Part shown: one piece after another, positions 10,718 through 14,923 of the stretch
How the letters are laid out: each line of letters begins with the position of its first letter
Numbering within the stretch: position 1 is the first letter of the stretch
Origin: Opitutales bacterium
GTDB lineage: Bacteria > Verrucomicrobiota > Verrucomicrobiia > Opitutales > Coraliomargaritaceae
Direction: 5' to 3'
NCBI GenBank assembly: GCA_030729385.1
Contig: JANQXM010000020.1
Span: 1-64,000, forward strand
DNA length: 64,000 nucleotides
The notes under the pieces: model-generated
Database searches by the model: none
Told to the model about the DNA's origin: nothing
Seen by the model: only the letters and a program-made list of their open reading frames with translations
Translations under genes and position numbers: made by a program

Positions 10718-10785
10718 TGTAGCCACGTCACTCTGTGACGTGTTCCTAGGAGCTATAAACACGGCAGGAGACTGCCGTGGCTACA
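10718..10785. repeat. Palindromic intergenic repeat, family B
   Basis: A 68 bp imperfect palindrome whose ends are TGTAGCCACG and its inverse CGTGGCTACA, with arms of about 25 bp. Its left arm matches the right arm of the element at 43282-43352 in 22 of 25 positions. Positioned between two plus-strand genes, it could form a transcript hairpin, but there is no U-tract. Confidence 0.7.
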
Positions 10786-11249: not shown

Positions 11250-14069
11250 ATGAGTCGCACCCAGGTCTATCTCGATTGGAATCTCCCCCTTCTCCCCGCT
11301 ATCACACAGCGCCTGCTATCTGACGCACAAGGCGAATTCGTCGACTTAAGCCACCTGCTAGTCATCGTGCCGACCAAACAAGCACGGCGTCGACTCCTCG
11401 AAACACTCGCCCTCGAACTGGCGGAATCGGGACGCGGACTTTTCCCTCCCGAAATCGTCACACCCGATCTTCTTTTAGCCGTAGCCATCAAGCATGAGCC
11501 AATCGCGAGCGAAGAAAGCGTCTGCGCCGCATGGGTGAGCGTGCTCGACCAAATCGACTTTGATCACTTTCAAGCGCTCTTCCCCATCGCACCGACGCCG
11601 AGCACTGGCTGGAAGCTCGGGATGGCACAGCGCCTCACACAACTGCGAACAGAACTCGGAGAAGCGGGTCTCGACATCAACCGGGCCGCCGAGGGGGCCG
11701 CTGAAGCGGGACATGAGCCCGAACGCTGGCGTCAACTTGCCAGGCTCGAAGATCTCTACATCGACAAACTCAAACACCGCGACCTGAAAGATCCAAAGCA
11801 AGCCAGACGAGATGCCGCGCTTAACTACACGGCCCCCGCTGGCATTCAGCGCATCATTCTCGCCGCCACGCCAGACCCACAAGCGCTCCCACTACAAGCA
11901 CTCGAACGTGCGACTGAGAGCTTACCGCTCGAAGTCTGGATCTATGCCAGCGACGACGCAGAGTTTGACGACTGGGGACGCCCACAAACCAATGCATGGA
12001 TCCACCGCGCCTTAGATTTCGAAGGTTGGGGCTGTCACTTCACAACACTCGCCGACCCTAAAGCGACTGCCGCACACATTACCAAGCTAATGGCAAAACA
12101 AGCACCAGAAGCCGTGCTTCTAGGAATTGCAGACCCAAACCTCAGCCCGACAGTCGCCGACGCACTCCAAACTGCAGATATCCCATGCTACGATCCGGAA
12201 GGACAACGCTTACTCAATGGCCGCGCCGGCAGACTCACCGAGTTGCTGTGCCAACTAGCGATCGAAGAAAGCACAAGCACAGTGCGCTCACTTTTACAGC
12301 ATCCAGACATCACACTTTGGCTCGGCAATGAATCGTCTCAAAACGAGCTCCTACGTCAGCTCGATCGTATTTTTGAAAAACACCTTGTCCCCGACCTCGA
12401 CGGTTTAATTCACTTTGCCAGTCGGCGCAGCGATACCGACGCCCTCGTGGCGGCGCTCAAACAAATCAAGGAAATGGCCAAAGCACTGAACTCAAGGACC
12501 CGCTTTGCCACAACACTTTCAACCACACTACAAGCGATCTACAGAGCGCAAAATAGCGAGAGCCAACCACACGAAAGCATCCCGTGGAAAGACAGCGCCG
12601 ACGCCATTCGCCAAAAGCTCGAAGCTAGCGTCACCACCGACGAGCACTTCACAAAACTACCCACAGATTACAGTCGCGAAGCGTTCCGCCAAAGCCTCGG
12701 TAAAGGCAAGGTCTACCCAGACAGACCCAAAGAGGCACACGACTTACTTGGTTGGCTTGAATTACTCTGGAACGACGCCCCGTATTTGATCCTCGCGGGA
12801 CTGAACGAGACAATCGTCCCCGACTCGGTAATCGGCGATGCCTTCCTGCCCGAGACACTTCGCGAAGTGCTCGGGCTACGCACCAATGCGCAACGTTTTG
12901 CGCGTGATGCCTACCTACTGGAAGCCCTCTGCCGCAGGCGCGCTATAGGCAACGGAAGAGTCGACCTACTCATTCCACAGACCGCTGCCGACGGCACACC
13001 ACTCAAACCGTCACGCCTACTCTTTCTCGGCGGAGCAGACACCCTTCTCCCACGCACTCGTCAATGCTTTCAAGCCACCGGATCTGTGAATGCACATATT
13101 AGCCACACACTCCCGTGGCGACTCAGCCCACCAGCCGACATCGAGCTGCCAGCATCACTATCTGTCAGCGCGCTCAAAAGTTATTTAGAATGCCCCTTCC
13201 GATTTTTCCTGCGTCACATTTTAAAGCTACGCACAATCGATGTCGAAACCCGAGAGCTCACACCAGCGACTTTCGGCACGCTCTTCCACGACACCGTCGC
13301 CGAACTAACCACTGCAGACATTGCACATAGCTCAGAAGCGGATCTCATCAAAAAAGTGCACGCCATCGCCGACGCAAAGATCCAACATCAATTCGGCAAG
13401 CAACTCTCTTTTGCGCTACGCCTACAGCATGAAGCGCTCATGGCACGCCTCATCGCCTATGCCAAACGGCAAATCGAAGACATCCAACAAAATGGAAGTA
13501 GTGAGATACTGAATACGGAAATGCCTTTCGAACGCGTCATCAACAGCATCACCATTAAAGGAACCATCGATCGAATCGACCGACGCAACGAACGCCTAGA
13601 GTTGATCGATTACAAAACAGCCGACAAACCAAAGCATCCACGCGACGCACACCTAGCAAAAGTCGCCAAGAAAGCGCCACCGGCTCACATCCCAGAAGAG
13701 GCATTCTTCGATGAAGGTGAAAAGCGCTACCGATGGATCGACCTACAACTCCCGCTCTACACACTTTCGCAAAAAGTCGCGGGAGAAGAGCGGCCGAAAG
13801 TCGCCTATTTCAATTTAGGCAACACATTGGAGCGCTCCGAGATAAATAACTGGGAAGACTTCACCGACAGCCATCTCGACAGCGCAGAAAACTGCGCAGC
13901 GGCAATCATTCAACAAATCAAAGACGGCATCTTCTGGCCACCCAACCCCGACGTTCGCGAAGACTACGATGACTTCGCCCCCCTCTTCCCCGACGGCATC
14001 GAAAACTCCGTAGACCCCGAGGCTTTCATGAACTACCAGTTTAAACAGGGCGTGAATTTCACAGAATAA
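11250..14069 (+). CDS. AddB-like exonuclease/helicase subunit (PD-(D/E)XK)
   Basis: A 939-residue protein related to the AddB/RexB side of the AddAB double-strand-break resection complex. The N-terminal half is a UvrD-like core with a degenerate nucleotide site (VIVPTKQARRRLLE). The C-terminal region from ~residue 636 (LSVSALKSYLECPFRFFLR) begins a RecB-type nuclease whose active site is LELIDYKTADKP (~783). I do not see the four-Cys iron-sulphur pattern of Bacillus AddB. The last two codons and stop fall inside the left inverted repeat of the inserted GxxExxY unit, so the present C-terminus may have been set by that insertion. addA follows after that unit. Confidence 0.82.
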   Translation: MSRTQVYLDWNLPLLPAITQRLLSDAQGEFVDLSHLLVIVPTKQARRRLLETLALELAESGRGLFPPEIVTPDLLLAVAIKHEPIASEESVCAAWVSVLDQIDFDHFQALFPIAPTPSTGWKLGMAQRLTQLRTELGEAGLDINRAAEGAAEAGHEPERWRQLARLEDLYIDKLKHRDLKDPKQARRDAALNYTAPAGIQRIILAATPDPQALPLQALERATESLPLEVWIYASDDAEFDDWGRPQTNAWIHRALDFEGWGCHFTTLADPKATAAHITKLMAKQAPEAVLLGIADPNLSPTVADALQTADIPCYDPEGQRLLNGRAGRLTELLCQLAIEESTSTVRSLLQHPDITLWLGNESSQNELLRQLDRIFEKHLVPDLDGLIHFASRRSDTDALVAALKQIKEMAKALNSRTRFATTLSTTLQAIYRAQNSESQPHESIPWKDSADAIRQKLEASVTTDEHFTKLPTDYSREAFRQSLGKGKVYPDRPKEAHDLLGWLELLWNDAPYLILAGLNETIVPDSVIGDAFLPETLREVLGLRTNAQRFARDAYLLEALCRRRAIGNGRVDLLIPQTAADGTPLKPSRLLFLGGADTLLPRTRQCFQATGSVNAHISHTLPWRLSPPADIELPASLSVSALKSYLECPFRFFLRHILKLRTIDVETRELTPATFGTLFHDTVAELTTADIAHSSEADLIKKVHAIADAKIQHQFGKQLSFALRLQHEALMARLIAYAKRQIEDIQQNGSSEILNTEMPFERVINSITIKGTIDRIDRRNERLELIDYKTADKPKHPRDAHLAKVAKKAPPAHIPEEAFFDEGEKRYRWIDLQLPLYTLSQKVAGEERPKVAYFNLGNTLERSEINNWEDFTDSHLDSAENCAAAIIQQIKDGIFWPPNPDVREDYDDFAPLFPDGIENSVDPEAFMNYQFKQGVNFTE

Positions 14070-14087
14070 TTATTCGACAGAATCATT
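14061..14087 (+). repeat. Left 27 bp inverted repeat of the GxxExxY cassette
   Basis: Contains two spaced copies of an ACAGAAT-type motif; the inner 13 bp, at 14075-14087, are CGACAGAATCATT. It overlaps the final codons and stop of addB. Confidence 0.75.
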
Positions 14088-14099
14088 CTACCACACGTG

Positions 14100-14897
14100 A
14101 TGCAAATTTCCTCAACACAAACAATCCAGGCGCTCGATCAGGATTCATTCCACTTGGTTGATAAGTTCATAATGGGGCAAGCATTCGAGATACACAACTC
14201 AATGGGCCGTTTACTCGACGAGAAAATATACCAATCAGCCCTCGATAAGGCATGCAAAAAATATTCATACAAATGTAGCCGCGAAGTTAAAGTCACAGCC
14301 AGCCACAAGAGCTTTTCTAAATCATATTACTTAGATCTATTAATCAGTGACGGAGCTATATATGAAATCAAAACGGTCTCGAAACTAACAAATAGCCACG
14401 AAGCACAATTACTTAACTACCTTTTACTCACAGGCATCCAGCACGGAAAACTTATCAACTTCGGAACCAACTCGGTAGAATACCGTTTCGTTTCAACCTC
14501 ACTAAAGCATCACGACCGATTTTCATTTTCGATAAACGCTACAGAGTGGGAAAAAGCATCAGAATCCTGCGAATCGGTAAAAGACATCGCGAATGATTTA
14601 CTTAGTGACTGGGGTTCACACCTACACGTCAGTTTATATAGCGAAGCTATTATTGAACTCCTAGGTGGTAAACGAAGGCTCCAACCTGTAGAATTATTCG
14701 CGGGTTCAGACAAAATTGGTGAACAGCAATTATGCCTTCTATGTCAAGATGTAGCACTCCACATTTCATCTATCAAACAAGGCATCCATTCCTATCAAAC
14801 GCACTTAGTAAGGTTTTTAAAATCAACTAAACTCAACTCGATACAATGGCTAAACTTCGACAATCATGAAATCACCCTAAAGAGCCTTAAAAAATAA
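14100..14897 (+). CDS. GxxExxY family nuclease-fold protein, long form
   Basis: A 265-residue protein of the GxxExxY family, a PD-(D/E)XK-fold group of unknown function. Motifs are MGQAFEIHNSMG near residues 25-36, YYLDLLI (~80), IYEIKTVSKL (~91), and HEAQLLNYLLLTG (~101-113) with KLINFG. The D...ExK pattern of the nuclease fold appears intact. Typical members are ~125 residues; here about 120 extra residues of unrecognised sequence follow, including QQLCLLCQD. The start is taken as ATG 14100, with GTG 14097 as alternative; no Shine-Dalgarno is seen. The gene is AT-rich compared with addB and addA and lies within inverted repeats, so it was probably acquired. Confidence 0.75.
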   Translation: MQISSTQTIQALDQDSFHLVDKFIMGQAFEIHNSMGRLLDEKIYQSALDKACKKYSYKCSREVKVTASHKSFSKSYYLDLLISDGAIYEIKTVSKLTNSHEAQLLNYLLLTGIQHGKLINFGTNSVEYRFVSTSLKHHDRFSFSINATEWEKASESCESVKDIANDLLSDWGSHLHVSLYSEAIIELLGGKRRLQPVELFAGSDKIGEQQLCLLCQDVALHISSIKQGIHSYQTHLVRFLKSTKLNSIQWLNFDNHEITLKSLKK

Positions 14898-14923
14898 ATG
14901 ATTCTGTCGTAAAATGATTCTGT
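14897..14923 (-). repeat. Right 27 bp inverted repeat of the GxxExxY cassette
   Basis: Reads AATGATTCTGTCG followed by a second AATGATTCTGT, the mirror of the left end at 24 of 27 positions. It begins at the stop codon of the enclosed gene. Confidence 0.75.

What the first reader, a model, noticed from the sequence alone, without database searches (positions are those of the whole stretch)
14061..14923. GxxExxY gene as a compact mobile cassette in the addB-addA operon
Seen: 27 bp terminal inverted repeats (24/27, with perfect 13 bp core) enclose exactly one gene of the GxxExxY nuclease-fold family; left repeat includes the addB stop; composition differs sharply from both neighbours; the two flanking genes normally adjoin. 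Inference: a transposase-free or self-mobilising element whose nuclease-like protein acts on its own ends, or an anti-phage module placed in a repair operon. Each end is itself a tandem of two half-sites, as expected of a protein-binding array.
Basis: partly seen in the sequence, partly recalled or inferred. Interest (0 to 1): 0.78.

Follow-up and report, generated by a model that had tools for sequence, protein, structure and literature searches.

The report
Nuclease gene boxed by matched repeats
A small nuclease gene sits between two inverted sets of short repeated DNA words; the same arrangement, each copy with its own matching word, surrounds most genes of this widespread but unexplained GxxExxY family that were examined, which makes it look like a REP/RAYT-type selfish or domesticated system built on a different enzyme.

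Summary
In detail: 27-bp inverted ends (24/27) enclose one 265/266-aa GxxExxY gene between addB and addA. Each end is two 16-bp half-sites. The gene sits at the same junction with intact ends in three relatives. Several relatives that lack it have addB abutting or overlapping addA.

The larger result is family-wide. All 7 GxxExxY genes of this genome have inverted array ends, each with a different word. Among 75 loci from many phyla, such ends flank 84% of long and 70% of short GxxExxY genes, against 2% of 280 control genes and 4-6% when flanks are mispaired. Short proteins go with ~10-bp units (CRCNNA, mostly three), long ones with two ~15-bp units. Array similarity tracks protein similarity. 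Mismatches between arms avoid the unit core. Gene-free paired arrays are scattered in genomes that carry the gene.

The protein is a Cas4/RecB-like PD-(D/E)XK nuclease with a conserved active site. The long form carries a second, inactivated copy of the domain.

Best reading: an analogue of the REPIN-RAYT system with a different enzyme and different repeats. Recognition and mobilisation by the protein are inferred, not shown. No clean transposition event bounded by the arrays was found.

The parts
14061..14087 (+). Left end array: two half-sites ACAGAATAAT (14061-14070) and ACAGAATCAT (14077-14086), 16-bp step; overlaps the addB stop codon
   Evidence: same structure at the orthologous place in G001, G002, G004
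14100..14897 (+).
14139..14498 (+). N-terminal PD-(D/E)XK domain (residues 15-134), catalytic set E42, D80, E90-x-K92, Q104xxxY108 invariant in 28 homologues
   Evidence: (invariant columns), AlphaFold model pLDDT 96.2, Foldseek best hit Cas4 SSO0001 4ic1
14538..14894 (+). C-terminal domain (residues 148-266): degenerate second copy of the same fold; keeps G173...Y181, lacks the catalytic residues
   Evidence: Same order of helices and strands in the model; profile match to short GxxExxY over 98 columns, P=8e-6, and to the N-terminal domain, P=1e-3
14897..14923 (-). Right end array: two copies of AATGATTCTGT (14897-14907, 14913-14923), 16-bp step, inverted relative to the left end
11250..14069 (+). 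addB-like gene (host gene upstream)
   Evidence: PF12705, TIGR02786
14970..18122 (+). addA-like gene (host gene downstream)
   Evidence: PF00580/PF13361, NF010485

Best explanation
The gene plus its two ends is one evolutionary unit: a GxxExxY nuclease gene enclosed by an inverted pair of tandem binding-site arrays that are its own cognate sites. It most likely works like the REPIN-RAYT system. A gene that stays put and is mainly inherited vertically encodes an enzyme that binds the arrays as a dimer, or in the long form as a fused pseudo-dimer with one active and one dead nuclease domain. It cuts at or beside them, and through repair it now and then duplicates short gene-free paired arrays elsewhere in the genome. 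Shown: family-wide inverted ends, locus-specific words, a unit grammar set by protein subfamily, core-biased conservation, conserved catalytic residues, domain duplication, gene-free paired arrays in gene-bearing genomes. Inferred: binding, cutting, and duplication by the protein.
For: Inverted ends with score >=14 in 84% of 31 long and 70% of 44 short GxxExxY loci, against 2.1% of 280 control genes in the same contigs and 4-6% of mispaired flanks. All 7 GxxExxY genes of this genome have own, different array words. Long forms have two units at 14-17 bp, short forms units at 9-10 bp; Mantel r=0.47-0.54 between protein identity and array similarity, p=0.0005. Arm mismatches lie in linkers: 25.5% against 5.7% in the core CRCNNA, p=5.5e-12; long forms 13.4% against 2.3%, p=8e-4. 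Active site invariant in 28 distant long homologues; model pLDDT 96, closest solved fold Cas4. Second domain is a degenerate copy. Window-type double sites: 12, 17, 6 and 5 matches in the four genomes known to carry the long gene, 0-2 in 39 others, reversed-pattern control 0. Addition at the addB-addA junction relative to relatives. Long homologues lie in different host operons (exbB-exbD, saccharopine dehydrogenase-decarboxylase, DegT pair, near dprA and uvrD). Parallels in the RAYT papers.
Against: No transposition event bounded by array ends was caught. The one repeated unit with matching 4-bp flanks (G011 C59/C99) has other outer ends and could be an unrelated miniature transposon carrying an array pair. 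The addB-addA and the purM copies are old and stationary. Co-inheritance of gene and ends alone would also give the Mantel correlation. The four gene-bearing genomes are related (three of one genus), so the dispersal statistic is not phylogenetically independent. Four-helix-bundle genes without a nuclease fold also have inverted arrays, though of another grammar, so a nuclease is not required for such ends.
Confidence: 0.58

Rival explanations
1. Passenger: the arrays are mobilised by some other enzyme or by replication and repair slippage, and GxxExxY is a gene caught between two arrays.
For: A 98% identical ~213-bp unit holding an array pair at two places in G011 with ATTA and TTAA flanks and CCTAAA/TTTAGG outer ends looks like a miniature transposon moved by something else. 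Unrelated four-helix-bundle genes also sit between inverted arrays.
Against: A passenger should not have a family-specific unit length and core: 10-bp units for short GxxExxY, 15-16 bp for long, 7-8 bp for four-helix-bundle genes. 2% of other genes in the same contigs have such ends.
Confidence: 0.2
2. Regulatory or RNA element: the protein is a resident repair or regulatory nuclease and the arrays are its operators, or stems processed in the mRNA, without any mobility.
For: Genes often sit in operon gaps in the direction of transcription. Paired tandem arrays were earlier read as global-regulator binding sites in Geobacter metallireducens (PMC2700814).
Against: Ends are symmetrical on both sides of the gene, not only at the promoter; gene-free pairs occur at unrelated intergenic sites; mismatches concentrate in linkers rather than being avoided everywhere as a base-paired stem would require.
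Confidence: 0.14
3. Anti-phage or defence nuclease parked in a repair operon.
For: Nuclease fold with weak similarity to Cas4.
Against: No PADLOC match beyond weak Cas4 (E about 0.005); host operons are varied housekeeping operons; defence does not explain the matched ends.
Confidence: 0.03
4. Chance repeats or ordinary terminators.
For: None found.
Against: Score 19 against a maximum of 9 in 305 background pairs; same ends in four genomes; family-wide statistics.
Confidence: 0.01

Closest known systems
REP-associated tyrosine transposases (RAYT) with REPs and REPINs (PMC2817692, PMC8049555)
   Same: Gene flanked by two inverted repeats; many gene-free inverted doublets with unrelated inserts in intergenic regions; the authors compare RAYT and REP trees; RAYT single-copy and vertically inherited for long times; more doublets in genomes that have the gene.
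   Different: Enzyme is PD-(D/E)XK (Cas4/RecB-like), not an HUH tyrosine transposase; repeats are tandem non-palindromic words of 10 or 15-16 bp, not GTAG-headed palindromes; mobilisation not demonstrated here.
Paired multicopy sequences of Geobacter metallireducens, classes 1-3 (PMC2700814)
   Same: Sites of 3-5 tandem 7-9-nt repeats, found as pairs on opposite strands at variable distance.
   Different: There read as binding sites of unidentified global regulators; the passages read do not link them to a gene inside the pair. Whether they belong to GxxExxY or four-helix-bundle proteins was not tested.
23S rRNA intervening sequences with the S23 four-helix-bundle ORF (PMC4990558)
   Same: Small ORF between inverted ends; Coxiella IVS has tandem heptamers upstream of the ORF and a 28-bp terminal stem; chromosomal PF05635 genes here show inverted 7-8-bp arrays in about half of loci.
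   Different: Different protein family, different unit length, located in rRNA.
Cas4 / RecB-type PD-(D/E)XK nucleases
   Same: Fold and active-site pattern D, ExK, QxxxY.
   Different: Stand-alone protein without CRISPR or helicase context; the long form has a dead second domain.

Membership tests
GxxExxY protein (TIGR04256 / PF13366 PDDEXK_3) | Profile score above curated cut-off | tested here: met
   90.6 bits (cut-off 35) and 95.5 bits (cut-off 22)
GxxExxY protein (TIGR04256 / PF13366 PDDEXK_3) | GxxExxY-type motif and nuclease residues conserved | tested here: met
   G37, E42, D80, E90, K92, Q104, Y108 invariant in 28 long homologues
REPIN-RAYT system | Gene flanked by two repeats in inverted orientation | tested here: met
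REPIN-RAYT system | Gene-free inverted doublets dispersed in intergenic regions, more in genomes with the gene | tested here: met
   genomes not phylogenetically independent
REPIN-RAYT system | HUH tyrosine (Y1, Transposase_17) enzyme | tested here: not met
   Pfam gives only PF13366; model is PD-(D/E)XK
REPIN-RAYT system | Palindromic REP with GTAG-type head | tested here: not met
   Units are non-palindromic tandem words
Insertion sequence | Encodes a known transposase | tested here: not met
   Only ORF is GxxExxY
Insertion sequence | Target-site duplication and several near-identical full copies | tested here: inconclusive
   No second full copy in the genome; no clean duplication at addB-addA
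23S rRNA IVS element | S23/IVP four-helix-bundle ORF | tested here: not met
   ORF is PF13366
Known anti-phage defence system | Match to a defence model | tested here: not met
   Only weak Cas4 similarity, E about 0.005

The most novel reading that the evidence does not exclude
GxxExxY proteins, present across many bacterial phyla, are array-recognising nucleases that copy or move their own paired tandem arrays: a REPIN-like dispersal system driven by a PD-(D/E)XK nuclease alone, each copy with its own address word, with four-helix-bundle S23/IVS elements as a parallel kind.
Probability: 0.42. Interest if true: 0.9.

Novelty: new variant of a known kind. Interest (0 to 1): 0.78.

Why it matters
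GxxExxY is a common annotation without a known role: 2 passing mentions among the open-access papers searched. Paired tandem repeats have been left unexplained in bacterial genomes (PMC2700814). The data here tie the two together: most GxxExxY genes examined lie inside a pair of arrays, and the array word and spacing follow the protein. That turns two orphan puzzles into a direct binding test with ready-made specificity swaps, and would add a nuclease-based counterpart to RAYT transposases.

Tried and rejected
Clean empty-site and target-duplication hunt: the purM-acyltransferase copy of G011/G004 (perfect 52-bp ends) looked recent, but relatives hold decayed remnants of the same element, so the insertion is old. 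Short copies L223/L229 of the CGCAGAT family lie in a longer duplicated stretch of 273 bp and were not counted as mobility. The G011 C59/C99 unit with 4-bp flanks may be another miniature transposon. A comparison in the genus of Luteimonas could not be run because the tool wants a genome handle. Plasmid homologues gave eight hits, all below 60% identity to the query, too few for polymorphism; two of the six read had clear array ends. Defence models: only weak Cas4. Literature: no paper found linking GxxExxY to repeats; bioRxiv and subscription papers were not searchable.

Full report
Observation. The inverted ends are real: 14061-14087 against 14897-14923, 24/27, similarity running on to 34 nt. 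Each end is a 16-bp tandem. The score (19) is far above 305 equally spaced pairs of stretches elsewhere in the window (maximum 9). One gene lies inside, a GxxExxY/PDDEXK_3 protein, G+C 39% against 54-55% in the neighbours.

Same place, same ends, in relatives. In G001 and G002 (same genus) and G004 (other genus of the family) a homologue of the full 257-266 aa kind (59, 47 and 47% identical) sits between addB and addA, and both ends carry the double half-sites, often sharing a genome's own variant: ATTCTGT at 16-bp step in G000/G001, ATTCTGC at 16 bp in G002, ATTCTGC at 15 bp in G004. The G002 gene is broken by a stop. In eight other family genomes and in G055 of another family addB abuts or overlaps addA, so the gene is best read as an addition to an ancestral junction. 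In genus g9 addA is not next to addB.

Dispersed gene-free pairs. In the own genome the double site with up to 3 mismatches occurs at three other loci counting contigs C66 and C70, which hold the same locus; all are inverted pairs of 120-155 bp without a gene, with different interiors. A relaxed pattern gives 12, 17, 6 and 5 matches in G000, G001, G002 and G004, and 0-2 in 39 other genomes; the reversed control gives 0. These counts include the two ends of the gene itself and, in G000, the duplicate contigs. The genomes are related, so this is supportive only.

A family-wide rule. All seven GxxExxY genes of this genome have inverted array ends, each with a different word. From 80 loci fetched with the four-member alignment, 75 had enough flank. 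Inverted ends with score >=14 occur in 84% of 31 long and 70% of 44 short loci, against 2.1% of 280 other genes in the same contigs and 4.3-6.4% when the upstream flank of one locus is paired with the downstream flank of another. Direct-orientation matches are also raised (29% and 34% at >=14) because some flanks hold array pairs themselves. Loci were chosen by protein similarity, not by repeats.

Grammar. Long proteins go with two units at 14-17 bp, short proteins with units at 9-10 bp, typically three (CRCNNA plus linker). Array similarity correlates with protein identity within the long (r=0.47) and short (r=0.51) classes, p=0.0005 each. Mismatches between the two arms are rare in the unit core and common in the linkers (short 5.7% against 25.5%; long 2.3% against 13.4%). 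That is what selection on protein-binding words would leave; selection on pairing of the arms would spare all positions alike. Co-inheritance of gene and ends could produce the correlation without recognition, so binding remains inference.

Protein. The alignment of 28 long homologues keeps G37, E42, D80, E90, K92, Q104 and Y108 invariant. The AlphaFold model has mean pLDDT 96.2. Foldseek's best solved matches are Cas4 SSO0001 (4ic1) and MGME1, with AdnAB next among nucleases, E 0.004 to 0.05 and no match below 0.001. The C-terminal half repeats the order of helices and strands of the N-terminal half and matches the short GxxExxY profile over 98 columns (P=8e-6) while lacking the catalytic residues. 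The long form is therefore a tandem duplication with one active and one dead domain. The short form was modelled too (pLDDT 94.9).

Where the genes sit. Host sites differ: addB-addA here, exbB-exbD in two loci of the PVC group (L116, L121), saccharopine dehydrogenase-decarboxylase, a DegT pair, a glycosyltransferase cluster, near dprA and uvrD; for short forms an enoyl-CoA hydratase-biotin carboxylase pair in L173 and L182 (the L182 neighbours by resemblance of sequence only), fabD-fabG in a Sphingomonas plasmid, radA-FAD protein in a Bacteroides plasmid.

Is it mobile? Over evolutionary time the unit has been placed in many operons, but each copy looks old. The purM-acyltransferase copy of G011 and G004 has a perfect 52-bp inverted end in G011, yet relatives show decayed remnants at that site. 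A 98% identical ~213-bp unit with an array pair at two sites of G011 has ATTA and TTAA flanks and CCTAAA/TTTAGG outer ends, with weaker copies elsewhere; it may be moved by another enzyme. Mobilisation by GxxExxY is thus likely by analogy, not shown.

Comparison. The anatomy matches REPIN-RAYT point by point except for the enzyme fold and the repeat type. Paired tandem repeats of 7-9 nt were described in Geobacter and ascribed to unknown global regulators. Four-helix-bundle (PF05635) genes in these genomes also have inverted arrays, with 7-8-bp words, in 53% of 30 loci, and the Coxiella 23S rRNA IVS has tandem heptamers before its S23 ORF. Two unrelated small proteins thus appear to have the same kind of surroundings with different grammar.

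Verdict. Observation confirmed; interpretation partly supported. The finding is one case of what looks like a general and, as far as the searchable literature shows, undescribed rule for GxxExxY genes.

Noticed in passing
L184-L213 (PF05635 loci of G000-G011, G045, G046): Four-helix-bundle (23S_rRNA_IVP) genes also lie between inverted arrays of 7-8-bp words (GAAGTTAG, GAACGTC and so on) in 53% of 30 loci; the Coxiella IVS has tandem heptamers (PMC4990558).
   Followed up: partly
L318 768-976 and L319 899-1107 (G011 C99, C59): 98% identical ~213-bp unit with an array pair at two sites, flanked by ATTA and TTAA, outer ends CCTAAA/TTTAGG; possibly another miniature transposon family.
   Followed up: partly
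G000 C66:2094-2248 and C70:10085-10239: Two contigs of the assembly carry the same locus (rlmN-hisC region); the assembly holds redundant sequence.
   Followed up: no
L068 (G001 C102:46901-46958): Tandem run of four 16-bp units ATGATTCTGTCGTAAA without a nearby inverted partner.
   Followed up: no
window 10718-10785: 17-nt inverted repeat (TGTAGCCACG..., 88% complementary) between the TPR gene and the DUF1294-like gene; G001 and G002 carry a gene-free ATTCTG array pair in the corresponding gap.
   Followed up: partly
L065 2700-3545 (G002 C71): The addB-addA GxxExxY gene is broken by a stop but both array ends are intact.
   Followed up: no
L304-L315 (purM-acyltransferase gap in genus g3): Stepwise decay of a GxxExxY element in relatives: left arm and 3' end of the gene remain in several genomes, nothing recognisable in others.
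   Followed up: partly
L173 and L182: Short GxxExxY genes of a Gammaproteobacterium and a Betaproteobacterium apparently sit in the same gap (enoyl-CoA hydratase / biotin carboxylase) with different but perfect ends (CACGGATT and CACAGATT words).
   Followed up: no
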